DNA of 24,754 bases from a virus. The notes beneath the pieces were generated by a model. That model worked only from the letters and a program-made list of their open reading frames with translations, made no database searches and was not told the DNA's origin. Position numbers and translations under genes: made by a program. The DNA lies in IMG/VR virus record IMGVR_UViG_3300049255_000575, positions 1 through 24,754 of that record, one strand, 5' to 3'. The first letter of the stretch is position 1. Every line of letters starts with the position of its first letter. This document shows positions 751 through 22,805 of the stretch, in pieces.

Positions 751-1461
751 TTACTCGCCGCAATCAACGAGTACAGCGCAGTTATATACCATAATTTTTG
801 TCGCAATTGATGGAAATGCCGTGAGAAATTTTTGACGAATCCATCTTTTTGTACTTCCGACTAAATATCCGTAAAGATAACGCTCGGTTTTCATCGATAC
901 TGGATCGACAAGAATTTTGCTTACTGCCAATCCAGACGTCGACAATTTATTCAAAAACGTTTCTAAACTATAATAATTAATGTGGCCAAATTTTTTACTA
1001 ATTTTGATTGCTCTATCAATTCTCAACGTGTGCTCAAGCGGGACTTCAATAACAGCATGACGCGAAATACGAGCTATTTCGCGCAAAAACATTCTTTCGT
1101 GATCAACATGTTCAAGCACATGCATACACACTGCAATATCAAACTCTTTGTCTTTGAAAGGCAATTTATAACCATCAAATTTTACTATCTCAACACCGTG
1201 CAACTTCCTTGAAGCTATCGCGTCGACCCCCGAAGGTGAGACCTCAGCCGCAACGATACGACCGGCGCGCCCCGATTTAGAAAGTATATCTACGAGCGCG
1301 CCTTGACCTGCGCCAACATCTATCAGCGAACGAATCTCATTGATGCCCAACAACTCATCCAAATGAGACGCCTGCTCTAACGCTGACAATGCCCTCTTTA
1401 CGTTATCGGCACCATCAATATAATATTTCTCATAAAATTCTATAGTATTCGATTCATTCAT
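751..1461 (-). CDS. Class I SAM-dependent methyltransferase (Methyltransf_11-like)
   Basis: A 236-residue protein with the Rossmann-type SAM-binding signature SLIDVGAGQGAL (about residues 45-56), an acidic strand-2 end (VAAEVSP), a motif II/III region (FDIAVCMHVLEHVDHERM) and a typical following strand (ISRHAVIEVPLEH). It should transfer a methyl group from S-adenosylmethionine; the acceptor cannot be read from sequence. The GxGxG loop and HVLEH segment place it in the UbiE/Methyltransf_11 group, whose members often act on glycans, lipids or small molecules. It starts 23 bases after the tailspike stop with only a weak GAAG upstream. Its DNA is strikingly AT-rich against the surrounding GC-rich operon and matches the distal part of the tailspike gene, which points to transfer. 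Inference: it may modify host surface polysaccharide, the likely tailspike target. Confidence 0.85.
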   Translation of the reverse strand: MNESNTIEFYEKYYIDGADNVKRALSALEQASHLDELLGINEIRSLIDVGAGQGALVDILSKSGRAGRIVAAEVSPSGVDAIASRKLHGVEIVKFDGYKLPFKDKEFDIAVCMHVLEHVDHERMFLREIARISRHAVIEVPLEHTLRIDRAIKISKKFGHINYYSLETFLNKLSTSGLAVSKILVDPVSMKTERYLYGYLVGSTKRWIRQKFLTAFPSIATKIMVYNCAVLVDCGE

Positions 1462-1484: not shown

Positions 1485-3359
1485 TTAGACCGTAGCGCCA
1501 GTAGCATCAACCCAAACCGGTCCGATCGCCGCTTTACACCAAATTGGCCTCGGCGTCGCGAGGCTACCATCAAAGAACATTTGACCAATGATCGGCGCGG
1601 TCGGGCGAGATAAGCCATTGGCCGTCGATTGCAAGCGCAAACGGCCGGACGGGCTGTCCGAGCCTAGGTTGGGCACATAATTCGTCTGGGTAACGAAACT
1701 CAACATTCCGCCGGCATCCATCCACAGATGACCAAAAATTTCCGAGGCATTATTGTCGAATATCAAGTGACCGCCAGCATAGTTGGATCCGTCAGACGTA
1801 TTATTTAGCATTATGTTGTAAGCGGATCTAAGCCTTAAATCCCTAGGCGAAGCACCTATGCCAGCCTGAAAATCAATACAATTGTTTGCCGATCCCCATT
1901 GGTTACTAGAAATAAGAAATTGTGCGTTATTGCCAGATCCGATATCAAACGCGAGAATTCCGCGATTAGAGTTAGCGGTAATTCCAAGACTTATCGCGTG
2001 TGAAGATCCACCCAGTGCGGATAATGTCATTCCACTGTAATTTGTCACAACCCATTGCGAGCCTGGAACATTAACACTATCGGGAGTAAAATTATTTACG
2101 AGAATGGCATTTGGGTTTGATATCCACATAACTTGACTTGATAAAGAAACACCGTTTGCATTTGTCGTCGGCAATGATGATATTGTTATTGTTTGGGCCG
2201 ACTGACTGAATGCAGTAACTACTGCGCCTAATGGAATTCCTGATCCCTGCAAATTTTGCCCGATTATTAAACTATCCCACGTTGACGACGAAACTCCACT
2301 TATTACATTCGACGTCGATGACGTAACGCCAGTGCCACTAAAATTTACGGGACCAAACAGTTGATAGCCACCCCATATCTGCGGCGGGACGTTTACAGCG
2401 ACCCCAGAATTTGCGTTAAAAAAATACGCGGCTGCGTATATCGATTCAAATCGATTACCAAATGCTTCAAACCCCTCTAAACGACCTCCAACCGCGATTA
2501 ATGCTTGCACTGCATAAGAACTACCCTCGAAGTCATTAAAGCAAGCTACAACACCATTTGCTACTGAGATCTGACCAAAGGGGTTTGTAATTAATATGCC
2601 AGAACTCGCCAAGCCGATTGAGACGTTATTTTGAAGACTAAACTGACACTTCTGCACCCGAGTCGAGTTCGCCGCCCCGCGCAGCCGCACACCGAACGGT
2701 ATATCCCCCACATCCGAACCGCTCTCCTTGCGCACCCAGCACCGATAGATCTCCGTCCAGAAGCACCCCGTCGCCGTATTGGTCGGGTCGGTCTGGAACA
2801 GGTCGATCGCCGCATAGTCGCTCTGGACGTTGCCGGTGAACGGCACGCCATTGGCGATCACCGAGCAGTCCACCAGCGACACCGACCCGGTCCCCGACAG
2901 CCCGATCCCGCCCAGCGCCGCATTGCTCCCCGTTCCGGTCCCAGCCGCACCCCGCTGGTTGATGGTCAGGCCCATCAAGGTCTGGCGGTTCGGAACGCTG
3001 TTTCCCTGGATCAGCAGGCCATAGAGCGCGTTGGCGCCGGTCGTGATCACCGCCCCATGGGCCATGATCAGGATATTGGCGGCCGCCGGATTGGCCTCCA
3101 GGTTCAGTACCGCCTGCGAGGCGCAATAATAGGTCTTGCCCGCGGTCATCACCCCCACGCCGCCGCTCGCCGCCAGCTGGGCCAACCAGGCGTTGATCGC
3201 GGCGCTGTCGTCGGTCGCGCCATCCCCCACGGCCCCGAAATTGTCGAGCCCCCAGAACGGCGCCGATCCCTGGGCGAAGCCGAAATTGCCGTCCAGCAGG
3301 GCGATCGAGGCCGGAGACGGCGTGGTGGCGAACTTGGTCGGCATGGCCGGAGAGGTCAT
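1485..3359 (-). CDS. Tailspike with pectate-lyase-like beta-helix (depolymerase-type receptor-binding protein)
   Basis: A 624-residue protein. Near residue 40 it carries DNFGAVGDGATDDSAAINAW, the classic opening of the Pectate_lyase_3 / right-handed beta-helix of phage tailspikes. A long Ser/Asn/Gly-rich stretch with repeated short hydrophobic strands follows, as expected for a beta-helix. The last ~65 residues (from YVPNLGSDSPSGRL, with PIIGQMFFDGSLATPRPIWC, ending VWVDATGATV) resemble a C-terminal cap seen in tail proteins. Spikes of this type bind and often cleave surface polysaccharide; the substrate is unknown. ATG at 3359 is preferred because AGGA sits 8 bases upstream; ATG at 3368 has no room for a ribosome site. 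Base composition falls sharply near position 2640 (residue ~240), so the gene looks like a fusion of a resident N-terminal part with an imported distal part. Confidence 0.85.
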   Translation of the reverse strand: MTSPAMPTKFATTPSPASIALLDGNFGFAQGSAPFWGLDNFGAVGDGATDDSAAINAWLAQLAASGGVGVMTAGKTYYCASQAVLNLEANPAAANILIMAHGAVITTGANALYGLLIQGNSVPNRQTLMGLTINQRGAAGTGTGSNAALGGIGLSGTGSVSLVDCSVIANGVPFTGNVQSDYAAIDLFQTDPTNTATGCFWTEIYRCWVRKESGSDVGDIPFGVRLRGAANSTRVQKCQFSLQNNVSIGLASSGILITNPFGQISVANGVVACFNDFEGSSYAVQALIAVGGRLEGFEAFGNRFESIYAAAYFFNANSGVAVNVPPQIWGGYQLFGPVNFSGTGVTSSTSNVISGVSSSTWDSLIIGQNLQGSGIPLGAVVTAFSQSAQTITISSLPTTNANGVSLSSQVMWISNPNAILVNNFTPDSVNVPGSQWVVTNYSGMTLSALGGSSHAISLGITANSNRGILAFDIGSGNNAQFLISSNQWGSANNCIDFQAGIGASPRDLRLRSAYNIMLNNTSDGSNYAGGHLIFDNNASEIFGHLWMDAGGMLSFVTQTNYVPNLGSDSPSGRLRLQSTANGLSRPTAPIIGQMFFDGSLATPRPIWCKAAIGPVWVDATGATV

Positions 3360-3417
3360 CGAACGCATCCTGTAGAGGGAAATGGAGGCCCCAAACGCGG
3401 GGCGCGGCGGCGGCGGC

Positions 3418-5009: not shown

Positions 5010-5471
5010 TCAATCTCCCAACCAGAGCGAATAATAGGTCTCCACCGGTTCGAACCTCAGGAACGTGAACAGCCGTCCCGCGTCATTGTGGAGCTTGGCG
5101 CCGACGAACCACCGCTGGACCCCGCGCCGCCGCGCCTCCCGCTCCACCGCCCGAAACAGTCGGATCGCCGCCGTGGGCGAGCCGTCGCGGTGCCCGGGAT
5201 GCAGGTAGAAGATGTCCATGGTCAGGGTCAGACAGGTCCGATAGTGCAGGCCCGGCGCGATGAAGCCGACGAAATAGCCGACCAAGCCGCCGTCTTTGCG
5301 TAGGGTGACGAAAACCACCTCGCCCCGCGCATCACGCTCCAGATAGACCTCATACTGCGGATCCAGCGGAACCTTGTCCTGGTTCAACGCCAACTCTTGC
5401 CAGTGCAGCGGAAACAGGGGCTTGAGCTCGTCCAGCCGTTCGGTGAGGGATTCGACCTGGGCGGTGATCAT
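5010..5471 (-). CDS. GNAT-family N-acetyltransferase
   Basis: A 153-residue protein of GNAT size and fold order. It has central strands VVFVTLRKDGGLVGYFVGF and LTLTMDIFYLHPGHRDGS, an acetyl-CoA loop with helix (about 94-117, HRDGSPTAAIRLFRAVERE) and a final AKLHNDAGRLFTFLRFEPVETYYS segment, where the late Phe/Tyr residues are typical. It would transfer an acetyl group from acetyl-CoA to an amine; the substrate cannot be read. Its ATG overlaps the TGA of the upstream oxygenase gene by four bases (5468-5471), implying translational coupling. The DNA ejection protein follows one base after its stop. GNAT genes in this position occur in other podovirus tail modules, where the role is unproven. 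Modification of a virion or host protein is a reasonable inference. Confidence 0.8.
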   Translation of the reverse strand: MITAQVESLTERLDELKPLFPLHWQELALNQDKVPLDPQYEVYLERDARGEVVFVTLRKDGGLVGYFVGFIAPGLHYRTCLTLTMDIFYLHPGHRDGSPTAAIRLFRAVEREARRRGVQRWFVGAKLHNDAGRLFTFLRFEPVETYYSLWLGD

Positions 5472-6013
5472 GGGATGCGCACGTCCACGATCAGGTGGAT
5501 GCGGTCGTCCGCGCCATTGTTCACCACCGAATGGACCGCGTGGGCGTCGAACAGCCAGGCCTCGCCCGGCCGCATCCAGACCGCCTCCTCGCCCGCATGG
5601 AACACACAGCCCGGCGCGCTCTGCAGCACCAGGTGCAGGCGGTTGTAATAGTGGGCGTAGGCCCCCAGCACGTCGGCGTGCGGATGGATCTGCTTGCCCG
5701 GCGCCAGCCGCGTCAGCATGACCCGGCCCAGCCGCTCGCCGCCCACCCGGCGCATCAGGTCCAGCGCCAGACTACGGATCAGGAACAGAGGTCCAGCGGC
5801 GGGCTGCCAGACGCATTCCAGGTCGTCGCCCAGTTTCGCCAGGTCTCGCCCCCCATTGAAGCGGACCAAGATGTCGTCGACCTCCCGGTGCGGCGAATCC
5901 TCGACATAGGTCACCCGAAGTTCATCGGCGCCCCACAGCTCCGGATGCGCCGCCAGAGCGGCCTGCAACGGCGCGAGGTCGACTCCGTCGGCGACCCTTT
6001 GGAAATGTCTCAT
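5468..6013 (-). CDS. Aspartyl/asparaginyl beta-hydroxylase-like Fe(II)/2-oxoglutarate oxygenase
   Basis: A 181-residue protein matching the Asp/Asn beta-hydroxylase domain (double-stranded beta-helix fold). The segment APGKQIHPHADVLG supplies the first metal ligands (H110/H112 with D114). YNRLHLVLQSAPGCVFHAGEE and MRPGEAWLFDAHAVHSV follow, with H161 as the distal metal ligand. R171 in DDRIHLIVDV is suited to bind 2-oxoglutarate. The full catalytic set appears present, so the enzyme is probably active. Family members hydroxylate Asp/Asn in proteins, or small molecules; the target here is unknown. Both ends overlap neighbours by four bases: its ATG overlaps the collar-protein stop (6010-6013) and its TGA overlaps the acetyltransferase start. 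This indicates tight co-expression with tail structural genes and suggests a virion substrate, though that is inference. Confidence 0.85.
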   Translation of the reverse strand: MRHFQRVADGVDLAPLQAALAAHPELWGADELRVTYVEDSPHREVDDILVRFNGGRDLAKLGDDLECVWQPAAGPLFLIRSLALDLMRRVGGERLGRVMLTRLAPGKQIHPHADVLGAYAHYYNRLHLVLQSAPGCVFHAGEEAVWMRPGEAWLFDAHAVHSVVNNGADDRIHLIVDVRIP

Positions 6014-9404: not shown

Positions 9405-9953
9405 TTGAAAAAGCGGCCTGTTCATCACATTTTGATCGCATTGATACTGATTACGGGAACCAGTTCATATCCTCAAATATCCGTAGCGCGCCACGCTGCT
9501 GGCGATCCACCAAGAGCCCACTTGATCGAAACGACCGAAGCGGCGCTCGTCGATCAGATAAAATGTCAGACATCGCCTAAAGTCGCGCTCGCCATCAACG
9601 CGATGATCAAGAATAGATTGATCCAATATCGGGATAACGAGAGTGGCGTTTATCTTTTCGCGCCCAACGCGCCTCTGACATTTCTCGGTCTTAGGATAAA
9701 AAATATTTCAGGATTTGACTACGAAGGGTTCAGAGACGTTCCGAGCTCCACCATGACTGGAACGGCGCCCCCGGTTTTTCTCGAAATCGATGTAGCAGCA
9801 ACCGAGAGTGAGCTGCGTGAGCGAGCGCTCCGCGCCGGCTTGGTGGAAGGCAGCCCATCCGAAAATCGGCGCGGCTTCGAAGTTTCGGCCCGGGGTTCTT
9901 ACCTGGCGGGTGAACCCCAGACCGTAACTTCAAAGATCGAATGCTTTGCCTGA
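9405..9953 (+). CDS. Secreted protein of unknown function, plus-strand moron
   Basis: A 182-residue protein with a TTG start preceded by GAGGAAC at a good distance; no ATG occurs before 9601. Residues 1-29 form a signal peptide: KKRPVHH, then ILIALILITGTS, then a possible cleavage near SVA|RH. The mature part contains EAALVDQIKCQTSPKVALAI, GVYLFAPNAPLTFLGLRIK and two cysteines (CQTSP near residue 54 and the penultimate-region C near the end), which could form a disulfide. No family is recognised. It lies against the direction of all surrounding structural genes, has lower GC content, and ends convergently 74 bases from the coat gene stop. These are the marks of a moron expressed from its own promoter, possibly in the lysogen. 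A TAATAT at 9372-9377 could be a -10 element, but no matching -35 is seen. Confidence 0.75.
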   Translation: MKKRPVHHILIALILITGTSSYPQISVARHAAGDPPRAHLIETTEAALVDQIKCQTSPKVALAINAMIKNRLIQYRDNESGVYLFAPNAPLTFLGLRIKNISGFDYEGFRDVPSSTMTGTAPPVFLEIDVAATESELRERALRAGLVEGSPSENRRGFEVSARGSYLAGEPQTVTSKIECFA

Positions 9954-11375: not shown

Positions 11376-11729
11376 CTAACCCTCGGGCGGACGACCGATG
11401 ACTTCGAGCTGCGTAAGCAATTCCGGAAGCGCGGTCCTGACCGTCTCCCAGACCGTATCGAGGTCAATTTCGAAATAGCCGTGGGCGATGCGGTTGCGCA
11501 TGCCCCTCATGCTTCGCCAAGGAATTTCGTTGTGCGCGATGGCGAAAGTAGAATGCGCCTCCATGATCTTGGTGGACGCTTCCCCGATAATAACCAGGCT
11601 CATGATCACCGCCTGCTGTGTTCGCTTGTCGGAACGAAAATCCTGCAGGCTCAATCCTTCGACAAATCCGCAAGCGTCAACTGCCGCCTCCCGGATATGA
11701 CCGAGATAGTCGGCAAGCCTTAACGTCAT
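11376..11729 (-). CDS. hepT: HepT-like HEPN toxin (RNase) of a HepT/MntA system
   Basis: A 117-residue all-helical protein of the HepT (DUF86) family. The C-terminal active-site segment MRGMRNRIAHGYFEID carries R78-x4-H83-x-Y85, the RX4HXY signature of HepT. In this family Arg and His form the RNase site and the Tyr is the residue AMPylated by the antitoxin. The opening MTLRLADYLGHIREAAVDA and IIGEASTKI are also typical. The ATG overlaps the stop of the mntA gene by four bases (11726-11729), giving the usual antitoxin-then-toxin coupled order. Known members cleave RNA to stop growth in plasmid or phage maintenance. GC content is lower than in the capsid genes on either side, indicating an inserted module. 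Catalytic residues are intact, so it is likely functional. Confidence 0.88.
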   Translation of the reverse strand: MTLRLADYLGHIREAAVDACGFVEGLSLQDFRSDKRTQQAVIMSLVIIGEASTKIMEAHSTFAIAHNEIPWRSMRGMRNRIAHGYFEIDLDTVWETVRTALPELLTQLEVIGRPPEG

Positions 11730-12016
11730 ATCGGCTTAGCTTCGGCGAGAACGCGGTCCCGAAATTTGAGGGGCAGGTCGCCGGGGGTCAGGAGATCGAC
11801 CCTAACCCCGAGAATCGCCTCGAGCTCGGAATGAAGGCGGCCAAGGTCGAACAAGGTCGCACCGGGCCGGGTGTCGACCAGCAGATCGAGATCGCTACCG
11901 TCCTTATCGCAGCCATGGAGAACCGAGCCGAAGACGCGTGGATTGAACGTGCGGTGACGTTCGGCCGCTTCCCGAACCGCGAGCTTGTTCCTGTCCAGGG
12001 CAATGGAGGGTTTCAT
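11726..12016 (-). CDS. mntA: MntA-like minimal nucleotidyltransferase antitoxin
   Basis: A 96-residue minimal nucleotidyltransferase. Residues 30-44 (GSVLHGCDKDGSDLD) give the exact GSx10DxD motif with S31 and acidic residues D42 and D44; D74 in VRVDLL is the expected third metal ligand. In the HepT/MntA system this enzyme adds AMP units to the Tyr of HepT and so neutralises it. The start at 12016 gives a protein of standard length. The ribosome binding site is weak, but a 14-base palindrome lies directly upstream (12021-12034) and could be an operator. The stop overlaps the hepT start. The pair reads in the same direction as the head genes, so read-through from the late promoter is possible. 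Confidence 0.88.
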   Translation of the reverse strand: MKPSIALDRNKLAVREAAERHRTFNPRVFGSVLHGCDKDGSDLDLLVDTRPGATLFDLGRLHSELEAILGVRVDLLTPGDLPLKFRDRVLAEAKPI

Positions 12017-12020
12017 GCTA

Positions 12021-12034
12021 CGGTATTCATACCG
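12021..12034. promoter_or_regulatory. 14-base palindrome upstream of mntA, possible operator
   Basis: CGGTAT-TC-ATACCG is a perfect 6-base inverted repeat with a 2-base centre, ending 4 bases from the mntA start codon. It lies in the 138-base divergent gap between mntA and the plus-strand small gene at 12155. On the minus strand it contains TATGAAT, which could serve as a -10 element for a nearly leaderless mntA message, but no good -35 is present. A compact symmetric site here suits autoregulation of the toxin-antitoxin operon. This is inference from position and symmetry only. Confidence 0.3.
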
Positions 12035-12154
12035 CAAACTTGGATAATCTCCCAGCCGACCAAGGCCTAGGTGATGTCTGAGTTTGAATTTGATGGCCGA
12101 ACCTGTCGCGCGTCGGCCCCAACCGCATATGATGCCGAACAAAAAGGAGGCGGC

Positions 12155-13332: not shown

Positions 13333-13656
13333 TCACGCGGCGTCTGTCCCGCCCGCCCGCTTCATCGCCCCGTCGTAGCAGAGCGCCTCGGCCACCTCGG
13401 CCTTGCCGCGGCGGGACAGCTTGCGGTCGTCGGGTAGGGCCGCCCAGTCGGGATGGTCCTCGTCGGGCAGGGTCAGCATCTCGACGAACACCTCGCGCAC
13501 GCGGGGCGTGAACATCGGCCAGTTGGTGCGGCAAAAGCCGTCCATGTCCGGCCATTCCCGATAGAAGGCGTTGCAGCGCACGGCCGCCGCCTCCCAGCAC
13601 TCGCGCGCGAACATCACCGCGTGCTTGGCGATCAGCCTGTGGGTCCCAGCCGTCAT
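13333..13656 (-). CDS. Small conserved phage protein of unknown function
   Basis: A 107-residue protein. The N-terminal half is Trp/Cys/Phe-containing and helical (HAVMFARECWEAAAVRCNAF, MDGFCRTNWPMFTPRVREVF). The C-terminal half is charged (LPDEDHPDWAALPDDRKLSR). Its ATG overlaps the portal stop by four bases, so it is translated with the portal; the scaffold gene follows 44 bases downstream. Proteins of this size between portal and scaffold occur in other podoviruses without known function. Three cysteines and four tryptophans in a cytosolic phage protein are notable, but no metal-binding pattern is evident. No family is recognised. Confidence 0.65.
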   Translation of the reverse strand: MTAGTHRLIAKHAVMFARECWEAAAVRCNAFYREWPDMDGFCRTNWPMFTPRVREVFVEMLTLPDEDHPDWAALPDDRKLSRRGKAEVAEALCYDGAMKRAGGTDAA

Positions 13657-15743
13657 CCGTCCATCCCCTGGTTGGCGCCGAGAATCTGGCCCAGCTGGAT
13701 CTGCAGCGCCTCGCCCACCGTCGTGCGGATCAGTTCGGCCAGGCCCTGCGGGTCCATCGGCAAGACCTCCTGCAGCGCCTGCAGCCGCCGGGTCTCGGCG
13801 TTGAACCGCTCCACATCGCGCAGCTCCTCCTTGCCGCGCGCGCGCAGCTTCTCGGTCGCCAGCTCGTCGGTCATGGCCTTCAACATCTGCTGGGTCGAGG
13901 TCAGCTGCTGCTGCAGCTGGGTCTCCGCGGGCGAAGGCCCCTGCCCCAGGGCCTGGGGCGGCGCCATGTTCCTCAGCCGCTCCGCCGCCTCTTCGGCCAG
14001 CGGGAAGTCGGCCGCCTTCAGCACCAAGTCCCCGATCACATTCATCAAGGTCGGGTTCTGCGTGGCGATCTGGGAGAGCGCGTTGAACGCCTCCTGCCGC
14101 CGTGTTGCGAAGGCCGGCCCCACATCGGCCTGAACCTCGTACTGGCCGAGCCTGGGATTGAACACGGCCGCGATCATGGCCCCCTGCGCCGCCTCGACCT
14201 GGGCGTGGGCCTGGGGCGCGCTAGGATCGACCTTAATGTGCAGCTCGGTCCCGTCCTCCTGCAGAATCTTCAGCAAGCGCGGCGTGTCATAGATCTTGGG
14301 CGCCAGGTCGATGATGATCTTGCCTGTATAGCGGATCGCCTGGGCCAGGTTGTCGATGTAGTGATAGGTGGCGTTGTCGCCCTGACGCTGGCGCTGCTGG
14401 ATGGCGACGCCGGTCTGCTCGTTGGAGGGCGCCCCCATCTGGGCCTGGTACTGGCCGGAGACCAGCTGCATGTCCTGGGCCGCCGCCTGCATGCCGTCGA
14501 GGAACGCCGGCGCCGAGCCCGGCGGCTGGGCGCGCTCGGGCGCGGGGATCGGACTGCCGTCGTCGTCCTTGTGGTTCCAGGGCAGGACCGAGTGGTTGAC
14601 CGTGTTGGCCGTCTCCCAATAGGTCTCGTGCCCCTCGATCGCCTGGGCCGGCGCCAGATAGGGCGACTTGCCCTGCAGCGCGCCGAATTCGACCTCGGCC
14701 GAGGCGTTGTAATTATACATGCGCTGCGGATCGATCAGGGCGCGCACATGGCCCTTGCGGTCCAGCTCGCCGTCGATGACCGTCTCCTCGCCGACCACCC
14801 GCACGATCGGGATATAGCTTCCCGGCCAGTCGCGCCGCTCGACGATCTCCTCGCCGACGATCTTGAACCACTCGACCCGCGGCTCGGTGATGTCACGCAC
14901 CTTCGTGGCCGGATCGTCGAGCACCGCCTTCACCGCCGCCTTGCCGAGCGGCTTGATCTCCGACAGACGCGCGGTCTTCAGCCCTCCGCCGCCCGCCGGA
15001 TCGCCATAGGCGACCAGCCGGTCGTCCTCGCTCGACTTGCGGAAATATTCCGCGACCATGATCTGGTCCTCGTCGGTCCAGGCCTCCTCATTGCCCAACG
15101 CCGGAGGCGAGCCGCGATCGGCCAGCTCCGGATAGGCCAGGCGGAACTCATCGCGCGGCATGCGCCGGAACACGATGCCAAAGCGCGCGTCCGACCCGTC
15201 CGCCGCCTGGATGTCGGGATCCAGATAGACGGTCAGGGGATCGACCACGGGCTTCAGATAGATTTCCTGGTCGAAGCTGTCGGGACCCGCATAGTCGGCG
15301 ACCACCCGCCAATAGCCGATCCCGCCCTGGACCTGATGGGTGGTGGCCAGGCTGTAGATGGCGTCGGCGTTGGAGAGGTACTCGATCCGCCGTACCAGCC
15401 CCTCATAGACCTGGGCGGCGTCGTAGGAGGCGTCGTCCCCCACAGGCTTGATCTTGATCGAAGTCTTGTTCTGCCGCGCATCGTTGATGATCTGCAGACA
15501 GTGCTGGCGAGTCTTGTTGATCGTCAGGCACGGCCGCTCGGCGCCGTCCCGCTCGGCCCGGACCTCGTCGGGCCATTGGTAGTGGTTGTAGGCGTCGCCA
15601 TTGACGAACTTCACATCCTGCAGAAAGCGCCGCCGCGCGGTCCCCTCCCAGGTCTCGCAACGCCGGAACCGCCGCTTGGCCTCGGCCAGGATCTTCTCGT
15701 CCCCGGTCAGCTCGTCCTCGGCGCGAAAGCTTTCGTCGGTCAT
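13653..15743 (-). CDS. Portal protein, P22 gp1 family
   Basis: A 696-residue protein, close to P22 gp1 (725). The start MTDESFRAEDELTGDEKI has GGAG 9 bases upstream; the frame is open another 66 codons but that part is low-complexity and unsupported. Family features are KRRFRRCETWEGTARRRFLQ near the N terminus, PCLTINKTRQHCLQIINDAR, SIKIKPVGDDASYDAAQVYE, then HQVQGGIGYWRVVADY and VDPLTVYLDPDIQAADGSD. A long helical barrel-type C terminus (PAETQLQQQLTSTQQMLKAM and RFNAETRRLQALQEVL) follows. The protein forms the dodecameric ring through which DNA is packaged by the terminase. In P22 the gene directly follows the large terminase; here 5.4 kb of effector-type genes intervene. Confidence 0.92.
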   Translation of the reverse strand: MTDESFRAEDELTGDEKILAEAKRRFRRCETWEGTARRRFLQDVKFVNGDAYNHYQWPDEVRAERDGAERPCLTINKTRQHCLQIINDARQNKTSIKIKPVGDDASYDAAQVYEGLVRRIEYLSNADAIYSLATTHQVQGGIGYWRVVADYAGPDSFDQEIYLKPVVDPLTVYLDPDIQAADGSDARFGIVFRRMPRDEFRLAYPELADRGSPPALGNEEAWTDEDQIMVAEYFRKSSEDDRLVAYGDPAGGGGLKTARLSEIKPLGKAAVKAVLDDPATKVRDITEPRVEWFKIVGEEIVERRDWPGSYIPIVRVVGEETVIDGELDRKGHVRALIDPQRMYNYNASAEVEFGALQGKSPYLAPAQAIEGHETYWETANTVNHSVLPWNHKDDDGSPIPAPERAQPPGSAPAFLDGMQAAAQDMQLVSGQYQAQMGAPSNEQTGVAIQQRQRQGDNATYHYIDNLAQAIRYTGKIIIDLAPKIYDTPRLLKILQEDGTELHIKVDPSAPQAHAQVEAAQGAMIAAVFNPRLGQYEVQADVGPAFATRRQEAFNALSQIATQNPTLMNVIGDLVLKAADFPLAEEAAERLRNMAPPQALGQGPSPAETQLQQQLTSTQQMLKAMTDELATEKLRARGKEELRDVERFNAETRRLQALQEVLPMDPQGLAELIRTTVGEALQIQLGQILGANQGMDG

Positions 15744-16093
15744 GGCAGCGCTCCAGGTTTGCGGCGTCTCGCAATCGACAGGGTCCGCCGCCATCGCCTG
15801 CGTCCGCCCATGCGCGTTCATATGTTCGCTAGCATCCGCGAGGTCGCCACGCGCGGAACCGGATTGGGCGTCTCGTCCTCGCAAAGATCGAGGAAATCGA
15901 TCGCCAACCTTGACGGACTCGCCGAACCGATCTTGGCTCAAAACTGCGGCCGGCCTGACCGAGGATAGGCAGCGGCCGTGTCGCAGAAGAAGCGATTCCT
16001 GGTCAGCGCCCCAGCCCTAGCGTGTGGCGCAGACACGGCCATTGTTAAAAGAGCTTCGATGACAGCGTTTGACGCGCCTCACATTGATCTTTT
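15744..16093. other. 350-base gap between nuclease-effector stop and portal start
   Basis: No supported gene. The minus strand stays open in the portal frame up to 15941 without a ribosome site. GGCCGTGTC (15973-15981) and GACACGGCC (16032-16040) are perfect inverted copies around a 50-base loop, of unclear meaning. If the nuclease-like effector upstream has an immunity gene, this is where it would be expected, and none is visible. Confidence 0.5.
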
Positions 16094-17896
16094 CTAGTGC
16101 AAAATCGGGTGCCATAGGCGACGCTCGATATCTTTTCGATTTGATTGAGCCACGGCATCCAGTATCGTCCGCGCCTCCTGCGGATTAGGCTGATGGCCTA
16201 ATAACGACAACGCTATTGAGATTTTAGCCGTGGTGATTATATCGTAGTCTCTGTGAAAGAAATTATGTACCGGCAGATTCACACCCTCCGCCGCCATTTT
16301 TGCTTGAGTAGGGAAGTTACCAGGCAAGGCAATTAAATTAGTTAACCCGTCGACTTCCCAACCATCCTGGGCGGCAAGCCTTTGAAGCCACAGAAATTTT
16401 CTCCATGTATTCACCGCGTTGAGGTGGTGCACTTGAATATTGTCATTAGGTTGAAGCCCTAATCTTGCACGTGCGACATCGGTATTCGATTGAAGTGCGC
16501 GACTTTCGCCTCGCGGACCGCGTGTGCTGTTCGACTTCCAATCGTCGATCGCAGCGTCGGCGACATCCCTGATAAGATTTTGAGCAACAGGATCGCCCCG
16601 GTCGGCGTGGTAAACCGTATCCGGCCTGAGCTGCTCTAGGCGCATCACCGCTTGGGCGGCGGCTTCGAGGCCTGGCCCGGTGGTCGGGGCGCTGCTTCTC
16701 CACGGCAGGTGGGTCTGGGACCAGACGTAGGCAACGGCCGCCTGGACATCCGCCCGCCGGTTCGGATTGAGGTTGAACTGCTTGATCGCCGCGTTGACTT
16801 GGTTACGCGTGTCCGCGTCCGTCGCCATTTTGAGCCCCACGCCTCCCGCCACGACGAGGGCTGGAAGCTCGGCCGCTTCAGCTATCGCACCGATTTTCTT
16901 GGCGAGTTCGCTGGCGGAAAGAGCCGGGGCGCGGGACGGCGGCGCACCGGCGGGCGCCGTTGCGGTTGCGGATGATGCAAGGATGAAGTCGCCGCGGTGC
17001 TTATCCAGCCAGGACCCCGGTCTGGGTGCGTCCTCAGGCCGGGACGCCTGCCCCTGGTCATCGTCCGTAGGCGGCGAAGCTTCGACCTTGCTCGGCGAAC
17101 CGTCCGGATTGGACGGCGCCGGCTTGGATTGGCTGTCGTTCGAATCAACAGCGGGGGTTTCGCCCGTATTGGCGGGGTCCTGGTCGGCGTCTCCACCGTC
17201 CCTCGGTTGACCATCGGCCGCCGGCGATCCCGCCCCCGTCGACGCCTCGCGCGTCCCGGACGCCGGGCCTTCGCCGTCGGCGGCCGCGGTCCCGGCTGAA
17301 CCGTTCTGGGCCGCGCCCGGGCTCGGCGCGGAGTCGCTCCCATCGGAGCCGGACTCGCCCCCGTCGGCGCCTGCGCCGTCGGTCGTCGCCGCGGTCGCGT
17401 CGGAGGTCGTGAAATTCGTCATCCCGGCGAGCCGCGTCCGCGCGGCCATGTGGTCGAGGCCCAGTCGCACCAGGGCGGCCCGACGCGCCGACTCGTCGGA
17501 CCCGTCCGGAACGCCGCCGAGAAAGCCGGCGGCGCCCGTCATCAGCTGGCCGAACTGCTCGTTCGACAGCACCCCGCCGGCGCGCACCGTCGCCAGCATC
17601 CGGGCCGTATCGCCCAACACCCTGTCCTTGGTCAGCAGGCCGGGCGGGGTCTGCAGCGCCGCCGAAAGCGTCGGCATCAGCGCGCTCGACACCGCGTCCG
17701 CCGCCGCCCAGTGCTCGGGGCCGTAGACGGCGACGGTCGGCGCGCCCAGGCTCAGTCCGCCTTGCGCCGGAGTCGCGTTCGGGGCGGACGGGGCGACCGG
17801 CGCTGGACCGCCGCCAGCCGTCGGATCGGGCGCCGAGGCGTCGCCCGTGCCCGGCGGATCCAGCAGAAGATTGGCGACCCCGTCGGTGAACGACAT
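16094..17896 (-). CDS. Polymorphic-toxin-like protein: shared N-terminal domain, disordered linker, C-terminal AHH-type nuclease domain
   Basis: A 600-residue three-part protein. Residues ~65-160 (ADAVSSALMPTL, LLTKDRVLGDTARML, LSNEQFGQLMTGAAGFL) are homologous to the same region of the protein at 19623-21113. Residues ~165-325 are a Gly/Ser/Asp/Pro-rich, probably disordered linker. The C-terminal domain has the HNH/Endonuclease VII-type AHH pattern: VHHLNAV (H490, H491), DGLTNLIALPGN (N520) and LPVHNFFHRDYD (H544, H548). AHH domains are nucleases of bacterial polymorphic toxins. The DNA for this last part is clearly less GC-rich than the linker, suggesting the domain was swapped in. GGAGG precedes the ATG. 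Substrate (DNA or RNA), delivery route and target are unknown; a virion-ejected effector is one possibility. No immunity gene is evident downstream. Confidence 0.8.
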   Translation of the reverse strand: MSFTDGVANLLLDPPGTGDASAPDPTAGGGPAPVAPSAPNATPAQGGLSLGAPTVAVYGPEHWAAADAVSSALMPTLSAALQTPPGLLTKDRVLGDTARMLATVRAGGVLSNEQFGQLMTGAAGFLGGVPDGSDESARRAALVRLGLDHMAARTRLAGMTNFTTSDATAATTDGAGADGGESGSDGSDSAPSPGAAQNGSAGTAAADGEGPASGTREASTGAGSPAADGQPRDGGDADQDPANTGETPAVDSNDSQSKPAPSNPDGSPSKVEASPPTDDDQGQASRPEDAPRPGSWLDKHRGDFILASSATATAPAGAPPSRAPALSASELAKKIGAIAEAAELPALVVAGGVGLKMATDADTRNQVNAAIKQFNLNPNRRADVQAAVAYVWSQTHLPWRSSAPTTGPGLEAAAQAVMRLEQLRPDTVYHADRGDPVAQNLIRDVADAAIDDWKSNSTRGPRGESRALQSNTDVARARLGLQPNDNIQVHHLNAVNTWRKFLWLQRLAAQDGWEVDGLTNLIALPGNFPTQAKMAAEGVNLPVHNFFHRDYDIITTAKISIALSLLGHQPNPQEARTILDAVAQSNRKDIERRLWHPILH

Positions 17897-18512: not shown

Positions 18513-18935
18513 CTATATCTCGCCCTTGAGCATGTCCTTGATCGTCAGCACACGATCGTAGGTCTGCCGCAAAAGACAGTCCTGCCGGATAACGTTCGCC
18601 AAGGTGCCGCCAGCCTCGCCCGAAGCCTCCGCCTCGCACTGTGCGTCGCGGAACGTCACCCAGGCCCGCTCCGCCGCAACCAGTATGGACTTGCGGTTCG
18701 GATCGAGCTTGGCCGTGAGCTGTCGATAGACGAGGTTGAGCGCCTTGTCCTGGCGTTCGCGCTCCTCGCCGGCGCAATGGGCCATCTCGAAATCGACCGA
18801 ATTGGCCTTGGCCAGACAGGCTTGATAGGCGTCGGAATAGGTCGGCTCCGCCGCCTCTTTCGCATTGACGCTTTCGCCGGCCACGACTAGGCCGGCCAAC
18901 GCGATCAAACCCATCCACACGGCGCGCGTATTCAT
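18513..18935 (-). CDS. LprI/DUF1311-family exported protein (lysozyme-inhibitor-like), copy 2
   Basis: A 140-residue protein. Residues 1-25 form a signal peptide: NTR, a hydrophobic core (MGLIALAGLVVAG) and VNA|KE. The mature part has the LprI (DUF1311) pattern: YSDAYQACLAKA, an ERQDKALNLVYRQL helix, LVAAERAWVTFRDAQCEAE and late cysteine DCLLRQTYDR. Four cysteines are placed to form two disulfides in the periplasm. The founding member, mycobacterial LprI, inhibits lysozyme, which motivates the functional guess. It is clearly paralogous to the gene at 19083-19499 (shared QDxALNLxY, LVAAERAW, FRD, CExE). Both follow a putative peptidoglycan hydrolase, so an immunity role is inferred. The start at 18935 is chosen to give a proper signal peptide; ATG at 18962 is an alternative. 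Confidence 0.8.
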   Translation of the reverse strand: MNTRAVWMGLIALAGLVVAGESVNAKEAAEPTYSDAYQACLAKANSVDFEMAHCAGEERERQDKALNLVYRQLTAKLDPNRKSILVAAERAWVTFRDAQCEAEASGEAGGTLANVIRQDCLLRQTYDRVLTIKDMLKGEI

Positions 18936-19082: not shown

Positions 19083-19499
19083 CTACGGCTCAATATTCAA
19101 CAATCTCTGCAAGGTCTGCAATCGATTATAGGTCGTACGCATCACACATCTGCCCTTGGCGACGCGAGACACAGCCCTGTCTTGTGATGCGGATTCCATT
19201 TCACACTCGACGTCGCGGAATGCGATCCAAGCCCGCTCCGCGGCGACGAGCTTAGTTTTGCGCCCGGGCTCGTACTTGGCCATCAAAGCCTGATAGGCCA
19301 AGTTGAGCGCCCGGTCCTGGCGCTCGGATTCCTGGACGGCGCAATCGACCAGGGCGGGTCCGTCGGATCCCGCTGCGTCGTCGCAGGCCTGAAACGCGCG
19401 GGAATAGTTGGGTTCTTCGGTCTCCTCCGCGCCGGAGACGCCACTCGCCGCCGCAGCGATGCCGACGCACGCCAGCACACCGATCAACCAGGCCCTCAT
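19083..19499 (-). CDS. LprI/DUF1311-family exported protein (lysozyme-inhibitor-like), copy 1
   Basis: A 138-residue protein with a clear signal peptide (RAW, then LIGVLACVGIAAAASGVSG, cleavage near SGA|EE). The mature domain follows DUF1311: YSRAFQACDDAAG, DCAVQESERQDRALNLAYQA, KTKLVAAERAWIAFRDVECE and GRCVMRTTYNRLQTL. Cysteines pair as in copy 2. The gene lies 123 bases downstream of the hydrolase-domain effector (stop 19623) and 147 bases upstream of copy 2, on the same strand. GGGA is 8 bases before the ATG. Toxin followed by tandem periplasmic inhibitor genes is the usual order of effector/immunity modules. Known: the family includes a lysozyme inhibitor. Inferred: it protects the host cell wall from the neighbouring enzyme or from rival phages' lysins. 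Confidence 0.82.
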   Translation of the reverse strand: MRAWLIGVLACVGIAAAASGVSGAEETEEPNYSRAFQACDDAAGSDGPALVDCAVQESERQDRALNLAYQALMAKYEPGRKTKLVAAERAWIAFRDVECEMESASQDRAVSRVAKGRCVMRTTYNRLQTLQRLLNIEP

Positions 19500-19622: not shown

Positions 19623-21113
19623 TCAGTGCGACAGCATCGCCAGCGCGGCGGGTTGTTCGGCATTGTAACGCTTCAACAATTTGGCTTGGTGATGCTCGAC
19701 GACGTAGGCGCGTCGAACCGAATAGAGCTGGTTTATCAAAGCGCGGTCGTAACCTGGATTCGAAGGGGATATCCGCCCTCTGAGGCTGTTGATGGCGGTC
19801 GTGACCAGTTGGCGCGCGCGCCCATGGTTGACCGACATAGACCAGACGGCGTTCTGAACGGCGGGCGATCGATTGTTGATATCTATCCCTGTCGTCGCCG
19901 CGACGCGCCGGACGAGAGGATCATAGTGGGTCTCTTTGATATAGTTGTGCTGGGCGTCGAAGAACTTGGGGTCTGACCGTGCGATCGCCTCCCATTTCTT
20001 CTGAAACGCTCCGCCTCGCTGGCTTGGGTCCAGCCCGGCGAACGCCGCGGCCCAGGGCGCGCCATCCCGCTTCAGAAAGGCCTGCACCTGGCGGCCGCCG
20101 ACCTTGGAGCTTGCAAGCTGGTAAGCGCCATAGGACACGCCCCCCGGATCGTCCACGCCCGTGGAGACCTTTGCCGCCGCCGCGGTCTCCTGCCCGGGGC
20201 GCATCCCGGTTTCGTAGACCATGGACAGATCGCCGAGCCTGGGCGCTCGTCCAAGGCGCGCGCCCCCGGACGCCGTTGGCGGGCCAGCGCCTTGAGCCGC
20301 CGCCTGGGGCGCGGTCGGCGCGGCGTTGGGGAGCAACTTGTTTGCGTCGGAACTCTGGTCGTTGGACCCGGCCGCATTGCCCCCGCTGAGATCGCCTGGG
20401 TCGCCGCCTGCGCCGTCGCCGTCGGCTCGGCCAAGCCCCAGGGGATCGTATGGAGATGACGGACCGCCCGCGCGGATAGAGACGAGGCCAGGATCAAAAG
20501 ACCCGACCGCGCCACTGCCGCCGGGCCGGGAGGCGGAAGGCTGTGTAGAGCCCTGGTCGCCGCGGTCGAAGACCTTATCCTCCGGCCCGCCGGATTCGAA
20601 GACGACATCAGAGCTGTTGGCGCCATCTTGACTCGGGCCGCCGCCGCTTCCCGCCAGCGCCTGCGCCTGAGCGTGAACGCCGAGGTGGTTGACCAGCATC
20701 TGGCCGGTCGCGGCGCGCAACACCGGATCGGGCGTGTCGTCGTCGAAGGGGGCCAGGAAATCGATCGCGCTGCGGACCACATGGCCGAATTGATCGTCGC
20801 TCAGTCCGCTGGTCCGGGCCGAGGACAGAAAATCGGCCGTGTCGCCGACCAGGCGATCCTTGGTGAGCGTCCCCGCCGGTGCGGACAGCACCGAGGTCGC
20901 CAGCGGGACCAGGGCCTGGGACACCGCACGCGACGCGCCCACGTCATTGGCGCTGAGGCTCGGCGACGCAGCGCCCGACAAGCCCCCGGAAAGCCCGCAG
21001 CCGGTCGGGTCAAACACCCCGACGCCGGCGCCGCCCGGGGACCCCGTCGAACCTGCCGGGTCGGACCCATAGCCGCCCAGCAGAGTGTTGTAGAGGTTCT
21101 GATCGTTCGTCAT
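19623..21113 (-). CDS. Polymorphic-effector-like protein: shared N-terminal domain, disordered linker, C-terminal putative peptidoglycan hydrolase
   Basis: A 496-residue protein. Residues ~60-155 (SRAVSQALVPLA, GTLTKDRLVGDTADFL, LSDDQFGHVVRSAIDFL) match the N-terminal domain of the nuclease-like protein at 16094-17896. Residues ~156-290 are Gly/Ser/Pro/Asp-rich linker. Residues ~295-490 begin MVYETGMRPG...STGVDDPGGVSYGAYQLASS and continue through FFDAQHNYIKETHYDPL and QNAVWSMSVNHG. This pattern is shared by VgrG-related and phage proteins thought to be lysozyme/chitosanase-like cell-wall hydrolases; E301 is the candidate catalytic acid. The start has GGAG 8 bases upstream. It could be the virion or lysis muramidase, or an antibacterial effector. 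The two downstream LprI-like inhibitors favour a cell-wall target. The enzymatic assignment is by motif memory and is moderate. Confidence 0.75.
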   Translation of the reverse strand: MTNDQNLYNTLLGGYGSDPAGSTGSPGGAGVGVFDPTGCGLSGGLSGAASPSLSANDVGASRAVSQALVPLATSVLSAPAGTLTKDRLVGDTADFLSSARTSGLSDDQFGHVVRSAIDFLAPFDDDTPDPVLRAATGQMLVNHLGVHAQAQALAGSGGGPSQDGANSSDVVFESGGPEDKVFDRGDQGSTQPSASRPGGSGAVGSFDPGLVSIRAGGPSSPYDPLGLGRADGDGAGGDPGDLSGGNAAGSNDQSSDANKLLPNAAPTAPQAAAQGAGPPTASGGARLGRAPRLGDLSMVYETGMRPGQETAAAAKVSTGVDDPGGVSYGAYQLASSKVGGRQVQAFLKRDGAPWAAAFAGLDPSQRGGAFQKKWEAIARSDPKFFDAQHNYIKETHYDPLVRRVAATTGIDINNRSPAVQNAVWSMSVNHGRARQLVTTAINSLRGRISPSNPGYDRALINQLYSVRRAYVVEHHQAKLLKRYNAEQPAALAMLSH

Positions 21114-21175: not shown

Positions 21176-22714
21176 TCACCGCCCCATCCACCCGCCCGCC
21201 GCCCGCACCCGCGGCGCCGGCCGTTCCACGCCCCGCCGCGCCGCCGCGGTGCGCCGCTTCCACGCCATGGCCACGGCGTCGGCGCAGTCGGTCGAGCCGC
21301 CGACGCGCTTTCGGATCTCGTCCTTGTCCTCGATCAGGATGTCGGTGCCGCGCACCCGGTATCGCGGCGTGGTCAGCTCCGCGGCCAGGCGCGGATCGGG
21401 CGGCAGCTTCAGCTCCGCGCCGCCCTCCGGGTCCAGGGCCTCGCGCAGGCGCCACCACAGCTCGGCGCGCAGATTGCGAAACCCCAGCTTGCCGTCCACC
21501 GTCCGCGCCGTGGAGCCCGCCGAGAACACGATCGAGGCGCAGGGCAGGTCGTGGTCGCCCTCCAGCCGCGACTTGACGCCGGAGCCCCAGCCGCCCGTCC
21601 CGTCCACCGACAGGTCGGCGCCGTCCCTCTGATGCCGCAGCATCAGGGCGGCGACATCGGCCGGGTCGCGGCAGTCCGCCCCCTTCATCACCACAAGGGG
21701 CGCGAACCAGGCGTCGGCATGCAGGCAGGCGATGGCGGTGCAGTCGGCGCCGCCCAGCGCCGGATCGCAGGCCAGGGCGACCATCGGCCGCCGCGCCGTC
21801 CCGGCCTCCCGCCAACGTTCCTGCGCCCGCCGGACCCAGGCGCTGGGAATGACCTGCCAGTCGTGGTCCTCGCGCCCGGCCAGGAAATCGCCCTTCAGCA
21901 ACTGCGAGCGCAGCGGCTCGGGCAGGTTCTGCAGCCGCGCGCGATAGCCGCTGTCGGCCAGGTACGGATTGTCCTCCAGCAGGGCCGGAATGAAGCTGCG
22001 CGACAGCGGCTTGTAGGTCTCGCCCCCCATGACGACCGGGTCGGGTCCCTCGACCCAGACGGTCTCCTCGCCCCGCGTCACCGCCCAGCGCAACTCGCCG
22101 GCCTGGGCCGGGTTGGCGAAGGCGGGATCGAGCCAGGGCGCGAACCAGTCGATCAGCCACTGCCCCTCGCCGCCGCGCGGCGGATTGGAGGCGATCACCG
22201 CCCGGCAGCGCTGCTTGCGCTCAGATGATCGCAGCCAGCCCAGGACGAAGGCCGCCTTGGCCGCCGTCAGCTGGGCGCCCTCGTCGAAGCCGATGAAGTC
22301 GTGCGCGCGCCCCTGCCAGGACTGCTCGGCGCCGGGCTTGTCCAGGGCGCCGAACTCCAGCAACCGCTCGTCGCGCCGCCAGATCATCTTGTCCGACCGC
22401 CAGCCCTCGCGCGATCCCGCGATCTCCAGCAGCCGCTGTTCGACCCCCGCCATGTCGACGAAGGCCCGGCGAAAGATCACCGAACGCTTGTGCTGGGTCA
22501 GGGCCAGGCCCAGCAGCAGCTCGCTCTTCCCGCCCCCCGCCGCCCCGCCATAGAGCAGCAGGTCGGCCTGCGACCTGTAGGCCTGGGTCTGGGGTCCGGG
22601 ATTGGGCAGCCAAGTCGCCTGCAGTTCGGGCTCGGCCAGCTTGTAGATCTCGGCCAGGGTGTCCAACGGGGCGCCGGCCAACCTCCGGTCCAGCCTGTCG
22701 AGAGGATTCGACAT
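21176..22714 (-). CDS. terL: Terminase large subunit (ATPase/nuclease)
   Basis: A 512-residue protein. The Walker A loop is GGAAGGGKS (residues 56-64), preceded by the typical SQADLLLYGGAAGGGKS. Walker B is HDFIGFDEGAQL, with the D-E pair at 144-145, and the coupling segment is AVIASNPPRGG. The C-terminal RuvC-like nuclease half shows LACDPALGGADCTAIAC, SVDGTGGWGSGV and DCADAVAMAW with conserved acidic residues. It drives DNA into the head through the portal and cuts concatemers. ATG at 22714 gives a start typical of the family (SNPLDRLDRRLAGAPLDT). A GTG at 22801, just after the upstream stop, would add 29 residues without family support. The portal gene would normally follow; here the effector block does. 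Confidence 0.93.
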   Translation of the reverse strand: MSNPLDRLDRRLAGAPLDTLAEIYKLAEPELQATWLPNPGPQTQAYRSQADLLLYGGAAGGGKSELLLGLALTQHKRSVIFRRAFVDMAGVEQRLLEIAGSREGWRSDKMIWRRDERLLEFGALDKPGAEQSWQGRAHDFIGFDEGAQLTAAKAAFVLGWLRSSERKQRCRAVIASNPPRGGEGQWLIDWFAPWLDPAFANPAQAGELRWAVTRGEETVWVEGPDPVVMGGETYKPLSRSFIPALLEDNPYLADSGYRARLQNLPEPLRSQLLKGDFLAGREDHDWQVIPSAWVRRAQERWREAGTARRPMVALACDPALGGADCTAIACLHADAWFAPLVVMKGADCRDPADVAALMLRHQRDGADLSVDGTGGWGSGVKSRLEGDHDLPCASIVFSAGSTARTVDGKLGFRNLRAELWWRLREALDPEGGAELKLPPDPRLAAELTTPRYRVRGTDILIEDKDEIRKRVGGSTDCADAVAMAWKRRTAAARRGVERPAPRVRAAGGWMGR

Positions 22715-22805
22715 GTCGACACCGCCCGTCCACGCTTGTCTCACTCGAAATCCGAACCCTGGGGTCGGCGCCGCCCCCGCACGCGCAGAGCCGGCGCTCA
22801 CCTCG

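What the first reader, a model, noticed from the sequence alone, without database searches (positions are those of the whole stretch)
16094..16650. AHH-type nuclease domain with lower GC content and no visible immunity gene
The pattern HH (490-491), N520 and H544/H548 with LxALPGN follows the AHH nuclease toxin family. The DNA coding this tip is less GC-rich than the linker before it, which suggests tip replacement. A classical toxin would be followed by an immunity gene, yet the 350 bases downstream hold none. Either the protein acts only after ejection into a new host, immunity is encoded elsewhere, or the domain works on phage/host DNA during infection.
Basis: partly seen in the sequence, partly recalled or inferred. 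Interest (0 to 1): 0.68.

Follow-up and report, generated by a model that had tools for sequence, protein, structure and literature searches.

The report
Phage toxin family, shared carrier domain
A P22-like bacteriophage carries two toxin-like enzymes, one a predicted DNA-cutting nuclease and one a predicted cell-wall cutter, built on the same previously undescribed front-end domain, which suggests a second way for phages to carry antibacterial toxins.

Summary
The AHH reading holds. The 600-aa protein at 16094-17896 (-) ends in a divergent Tox-AHH nuclease with HH490-491, N520, H544, H548 and Y551 present. It is below Pfam's cut-off but well above shuffled controls. Its DNA falls from GC3 0.94 in the N-terminal domain to 0.50 in the tip. 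No recognisable immunity gene is near it. The protein shares a ~100-aa helical N-terminal domain with a second protein between terminase and portal (19623-21113), which ends in a VgrG3-type muramidase and is followed by two LprI lysozyme-inhibitor genes. A syntenic sister phage has the domain twice: as a short stand-alone protein in the same slot, and fused to a GH-E-like nuclease with an overlapping TPR gene. That nuclease-TPR cassette recurs on a Rhizobium PAAR-like effector. The 'empty' 350 bases downstream hold a decayed fifth copy of the domain. This is a phage polymorphic-toxin family that looks like MuF toxins but has an unrelated, undescribed carrier domain, found in only two phages. 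Delivery in the virion is inferred, not shown. The AHH gene is probably an orphan of cassette swapping.

The parts
16094..17896 (-). AHH protein, 600 aa: N-terminal tail, N-domain, low-complexity linker, AHH nuclease tip
   Evidence: ribosome-binding site GGAGG before ATG 17896
17417..17710 (-). N-domain (shared carrier domain) of the AHH protein, aa 63-160
   Evidence: 41% identity over 86 aa with the muramidase protein, E 3e-13; 4-copy profile; helical model
16241..16453 (-). AHH nuclease core, aa 482-552 (H490 H491 N520 H544 H548 Y551)
15824..16078 (-). decayed copy of the N-domain between AHH gene and portal (internal stop, frame shifts)
   Evidence: tblastn 43.5% over 85 aa, E 1e-14; 26.6 bits against 9.6 for the best of 5,000 shuffles
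19623..21113 (-). muramidase protein, 496 aa: N-domain, linker, VgrG3-type C-terminal glycosidase
20649..20942 (-). N-domain of the muramidase protein, aa 58-155
19704..20237 (-). VgrG3-like C-terminal (muramidase) domain PF21277
   Evidence: 119.6 bits, cut-off 27
19083..19499 (-). LprI-family gene, signal-peptide-like start; probable immunity gene of the muramidase protein
   Evidence: PF07007 E 8.1e-17
18513..18935 (-). second LprI-family gene, 43% identical to the first
   Evidence: PF07007 E 4.6e-20
13653..15743 (-). P22-type portal gene, downstream boundary of the cargo region
   Evidence: PF16510 E 1.2e-167; start by homology with the sister phage
21176..22801 (-). terminase large subunit gene, upstream boundary of the cargo region
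   Evidence: PF03237 E 4.3e-5; 80% DNA identity with the sister

Best explanation
The AHH nuclease is the C-terminal tip of one member of a phage-borne polymorphic toxin family. A ~100-aa helical N-terminal domain, encoded among the P22-like packaging and virion genes, is the constant carrier. Different toxic tips (AHH nuclease, VgrG3-type muramidase, GH-E-like nuclease) are attached to it through low-complexity linkers and exchanged by recombination, usually together with immunity genes. Shown by sequence: the shared domain, the different tips, LprI and TPR genes beside two of them, foreign composition of the nuclease tips, a decayed carrier copy, and an AHH core with all family residues. Inferred: the carrier places the protein in the capsid, as proposed for MuF toxins, and the tip enters the infected cell with the genome, where the AHH domain cuts nucleic acid. 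Inferred: this AHH copy lacks an immunity gene because the cassette was gained or rearranged without one, so its producer relies on late expression before lysis, packaging, or an inhibitor not recognised here.
For: Shared N-domain on unrelated tips; two LprI genes after the muramidase protein, a family used as immunity beside lysozyme-like T6SS effectors (PMC12135965, PMC8867033). Syntenic sister phage with the domain alone in the same slot and fused to a GH-E-like tip plus TPR gene. Same tip and TPR gene behind a PAAR-like N-terminus in Rhizobium. AHH and GH-E domains are described as largely restricted to polymorphic toxins (PMC3482391). GC3 drop at both nuclease tips. Decayed N-domain next to the AHH gene. 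Short and toxin-tipped forms in the packaging module are as in MuF toxins (PMC5576092).
Against: No immunity gene found for the AHH tip. No evidence that any N-domain protein is in the virion; the domain matches no known capsid or portal-binding protein. Only two phages carry it. AHH and GH-E matches are below curated cut-offs. Host and lifestyle unknown.
Confidence: 0.62

Rival explanations
1. The proteins are virion-associated infection factors rather than toxins: the muramidase opens peptidoglycan during entry and the nuclease attacks host or competitor DNA after entry. The LprI proteins then act as superinfection exclusion against later phages of the same kind.
For: Location among packaging and virion genes; muramidase domains of this type occur in many phage tail proteins; podophages need peptidoglycan-opening ejection proteins (established knowledge).
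Against: AHH and GH-E are toxin-system domains; the sister's GH-E-like tip has a TPR partner shared with a T6SS-type effector; in the sister the slot protein has no enzyme tip at all, so the enzymes are dispensable for infection.
Confidence: 0.2
2. The AHH gene is a relic: an orphan tip left by recombination, no longer selected and perhaps inactive.
For: No immunity gene; a decayed N-domain copy lies right beside it; Pfam score below cut-off.
Against: 600 open codons and a good ribosome-binding site; all AHH residues intact; N-domain GC3 like core phage genes.
Confidence: 0.12
3. The nuclease is a homing-type or packaging-associated HNH endonuclease, as found near terminase and portal genes of other phages.
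For: HNH/EndoVII superfamily and position between terminase and portal (established knowledge of such genes).
Against: It is the tip of a protein whose N-domain also carries a muramidase; it matches AHH, not homing HNH families; the sister lacks it and its portal and terminase are intact.
Confidence: 0.04

Closest known systems
MuF polymorphic toxins of temperate phages (PMC5576092; Bxa and Apk2, PMC11699363)
   Same: Carrier domain encoded in the packaging and head module; short and toxin-tipped forms; variable C-terminal toxins; neighbouring small immunity genes, sometimes two.
   Different: N-domain is not MuF (PF04233 no match at E 10; no Pfam match at all); P22-like podovirus, whereas MuF is rare in podoviruses; several toxins per phage at two sites; the AHH member has no immunity gene.
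Tox-AHH nuclease toxins (PF14412; PMC3482391)
   Same: HH, N, H, H, Y residues in order; C-terminal tip position.
   Different: Below Pfam cut-off; V before HH; no adjacent immunity gene; new carrier.
T6SS effectors with VgrG3-like C-terminal muramidase or lysozyme-like domains and LprI/DUF1311 immunity (PMC8867033, PMC12135965)
   Same: Glycosidase domain PF21277, PF07007 genes directly after it with signal-peptide-like starts.
   Different: No VgrG, PAAR or WHIX part recognised; phage N-domain instead; two tandem LprI genes.
Rhizobium sp. NXC24 plasmid Tox-PAAR-like effector (L173 4717-7233)
   Same: Same GH-E-like tip and a homologous TPR gene as in the sister phage.
   Different: PAAR-like N-terminus on a plasmid instead of the phage N-domain; an extra TPR-like gene in between.

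Membership tests
Tox-AHH (PF14412) | [AG]HH, N, H, H, Y residues in order (PMC3482391) | tested here: met
   VHH490-491, N520, H544, H548, Y551 aligned with 17 members; V for A/G, a position where members over the cut-off also vary
Tox-AHH (PF14412) | Pfam score over the curated cut-off | tested here: not met
   15.3 bits against 22.3; custom profile 22.0-22.8 bits against 11.9 for the best of 10,000 shuffles
Tox-AHH (PF14412) | HNH/EndoVII treble-clef fold | tested here: inconclusive
   single-sequence model mean pLDDT 43
Polymorphic toxin system | constant N-terminal part with variable toxin tips | tested here: met
   three different tips and one tipless form on one N-domain in two phages
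Polymorphic toxin system | cognate immunity gene beside the toxin | tested here: inconclusive
   met in position and family for muramidase (LprI x2) and sister GH-E-like tip (TPR); not found for AHH; function untested
MuF toxin family | MuF domain (PF04233, PF06152) | tested here: not met
   no PF04233 match at E 10 in either phage; no MuF family in Pfam scans of the N-domain proteins; MuF3 and MuF4 profiles not available
MuF toxin family | gene in the packaging/head module of a phage | tested here: met
   between terminase and portal in both phages
MuF toxin family | carrier present in the virion | not testable with these tools
   needs virion proteomics
LprI (PF07007) immunity of lysozyme-like effectors | PF07007 match and signal peptide, beside a muramidase gene | tested here: met
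   E 8.1e-17 and 4.6e-20; N-termini judged by eye

The most novel reading that the evidence does not exclude
The ~100-aa N-domain is a new virion-targeting module, unrelated to MuF, by which P22-like phages load interchangeable antibacterial enzymes into the capsid and eject them into the infected cell; the orphan AHH nuclease needs no immunity gene because it becomes active only after ejection.
Probability: 0.3. Interest if true: 0.78.

Novelty: new variant of a known kind. Interest (0 to 1): 0.62.

Why it matters
Phage-borne polymorphic toxins are known mainly from one carrier, MuF, and how they reach their targets is unproven. A second, unrelated carrier in P22-like phages, with several tips per phage and cassettes shared with T6SS-type effectors, would show that this way of carrying toxins arose more than once. 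P22-type virions are structurally well understood, so loading and ejection could be tested directly.

Tried and rejected
Whole-protein searches found no relative in IMG/VR or 50,697 phage records, nor did the AHH domain alone in viral contigs. The AHH domain against solved structures gave only a tag-like chance match and against plasmids one weak hit. N-domain: the genome-contig scan was empty; three weak hits in 289 alphaproteobacterial genomes lie in or antisense to unrelated genes; weak hits in L054 and L085 were judged chance. LprI as AHH immunity rejected: these proteins look periplasmic and belong to a lysozyme-inhibitor family. Imm11, a known AHH partner, is absent. The overlapping gene after the L174 AHH gene, probably its immunity gene, has no counterpart in the window. 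The HepT/MntA-like genes at 11376-12142 were considered as AHH immunity and rejected as a separate toxin-antitoxin pair. The AHH fold prediction failed. The N-domain fold search found nothing with E below 0.8.

Full report
What was checked. The ORF 16094-17896 (-) encodes 600 aa. Pfam AHH (PF14412) matches aa 482-552 at 15.3 bits, under the 22.3-bit cut-off. To see whether this is real, I fetched AHH members over the cut-off from proteobacterial genomes and L174, the one relative found with the window's own domain, which also passes the cut-off. A profile of these 17 scores the window protein at 22.0-22.8 bits, while the best of 10,000 shuffles of the domain reaches 11.9; hhalign gives 80-85% probability. 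The published signature of Tox-AHH is [AG]HH, N, H, H, Y (PMC3482391). All are present except that V replaces A/G, a position where members over the cut-off also vary. L174 reads GWAMDARANLVALP...LPMHNGPHPGYS against GWEVDGLTNLIALP...LPVHNFFHRDYD here, and is followed by an overlapping 223-aa gene of unknown family, probably its immunity gene. The fold itself could not be tested.

Composition. GC3 falls from 0.94 (N-domain) through 0.79 (linker) and 0.59 to 0.50 in the AHH tip; core genes of the phage are 0.89-0.93. The sister's GH-E-like tip shows the same fall, from 0.87 to 0.55.

Surroundings. The window is a 24,754-base virus record with P22-type portal, coat and scaffold genes and terminase, head-closure, tail and ejection-protein genes on the minus strand. 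In transcription order the region reads terminase, muramidase protein, LprI, LprI, AHH protein, portal. The muramidase protein (496 aa, start 21113) ends in PF21277, the C-terminal domain of VgrG3-like T6SS spikes (E 2e-34). Both following genes belong to LprI, a lysozyme-inhibitor family (E 8e-17 and 5e-20), with signal-peptide-like starts. LprI/DUF1311 genes stand beside lysozyme-like T6SS effectors and are taken as their immunity genes (PMC12135965, PMC8867033).

The shared domain. The AHH and muramidase proteins share a domain of about 100 aa near their N-termini (41% over 86 aa, E 3e-13), although their tips are unrelated. A relative of the whole phage (IMGVR_UViG_3300049617_000450; portal 82% identical, gene order kept) has a 212-aa protein with the domain and a short tail in the same terminase-portal slot. 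It has a second, 769-aa protein with the domain just before the tail-fibre gene. The last 130 aa of this protein weakly match GH-E (E 0.07), and a 144-aa TPR gene overlaps its stop by 4 bases. The same tip (38.5%, E 4e-19) and TPR gene (37%, E 8e-31) occur together on a Rhizobium plasmid behind a Tox-PAAR-like N-terminus, so tip and TPR gene travel as a cassette. The four intact N-domains give a helical model (block pLDDT 71-86 over aa 61-150) with no similar solved or viral structure. They have no Pfam, PHROG or NCBIfam match in the scans made, and PF04233 (MuF) finds nothing in either phage.

The gap. The 350 bases between the AHH gene and the portal contain no intact gene but do contain a decayed N-domain. 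One frame reads GASNAVIEALLTM...ALTRNRFFCDTA, then a stop, then LAIDFLDLCEDETPNPVPRVATSRMLAN. It aligns at 43.5% over 85 aa with the muramidase N-domain (E 1e-14; 26.6 bits against 9.6 for the best of 5,000 shuffles). Part of the middle aligns better in another frame. I read it only as pieces. It marks past rearrangement exactly where the AHH immunity gene would be expected. The 616 bases upstream of the AHH gene hold no recognisable gene or remnant on the coding strand.

How it probably works. The architecture is that of a polymorphic toxin: constant carrier, linker, exchangeable tip, neighbouring immunity gene. [quoted passage not shown] Two MuF toxins with two immunity proteins each are characterised (PMC11699363). 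By analogy, the N-domain would place the protein in the capsid and the tip would enter the cell with the genome. This step is inferred. The muramidase tip would act in the periplasm, where LprI could protect the producing cell or lysogen; the AHH tip would cut nucleic acid. Lack of an AHH immunity gene is unusual for such systems. The decayed carrier copy favours loss or gain by rearrangement over a design without immunity, but the latter (activity only after ejection) is not excluded.

Limits. Only two phages carry the domain in everything I could search; metagenome contigs were not available. Host and lifestyle are unknown. Both nuclease assignments are below curated cut-offs. Nothing shows that any of these proteins is in the virion.

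Noticed in passing
window 11376-12142 (-): HepT-like (PF01934, E 1.5e-26) and MntA-like nucleotidyltransferase (PF01909) genes, overlapping, inserted between scaffold and coat genes; absent at that point in the sister phage. A toxin-antitoxin pair inside the head gene block.
   Followed up: partly
window 9405-9953 (+): Low-GC gene on the opposite strand, 182 aa with a signal-peptide-like start and no Pfam match, in a 0.77-kb stretch mostly absent from the sister phage; possible lysogenic-conversion gene.
   Followed up: no
window 5010-6013 (-): GNAT-like acetyltransferase and aspartyl/asparaginyl beta-hydroxylase (PF05118, E 3e-19) genes beside the tail genes, conserved in the sister phage.
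   Followed up: no
window 751-1461 (-): Low-GC (about 40%) methyltransferase gene at the edge of the record (PF08241, E 2.6e-16).
   Followed up: no
window 1485-3368 (-): Possible tailspike with an N-terminal pectate-lyase/endosialidase-like stretch in low-GC DNA.
   Followed up: no
L092 3200-3340: Tandem DDSGQ repeats in the linker after the N-domain of the sister's 769-aa protein.
   Followed up: no
L173 6342-6797: A 151-aa gene between the Rhizobium effector and its TPR gene also resembles the sister TPR protein weakly (31%, E 5e-9): duplicated immunity gene.
   Followed up: partly
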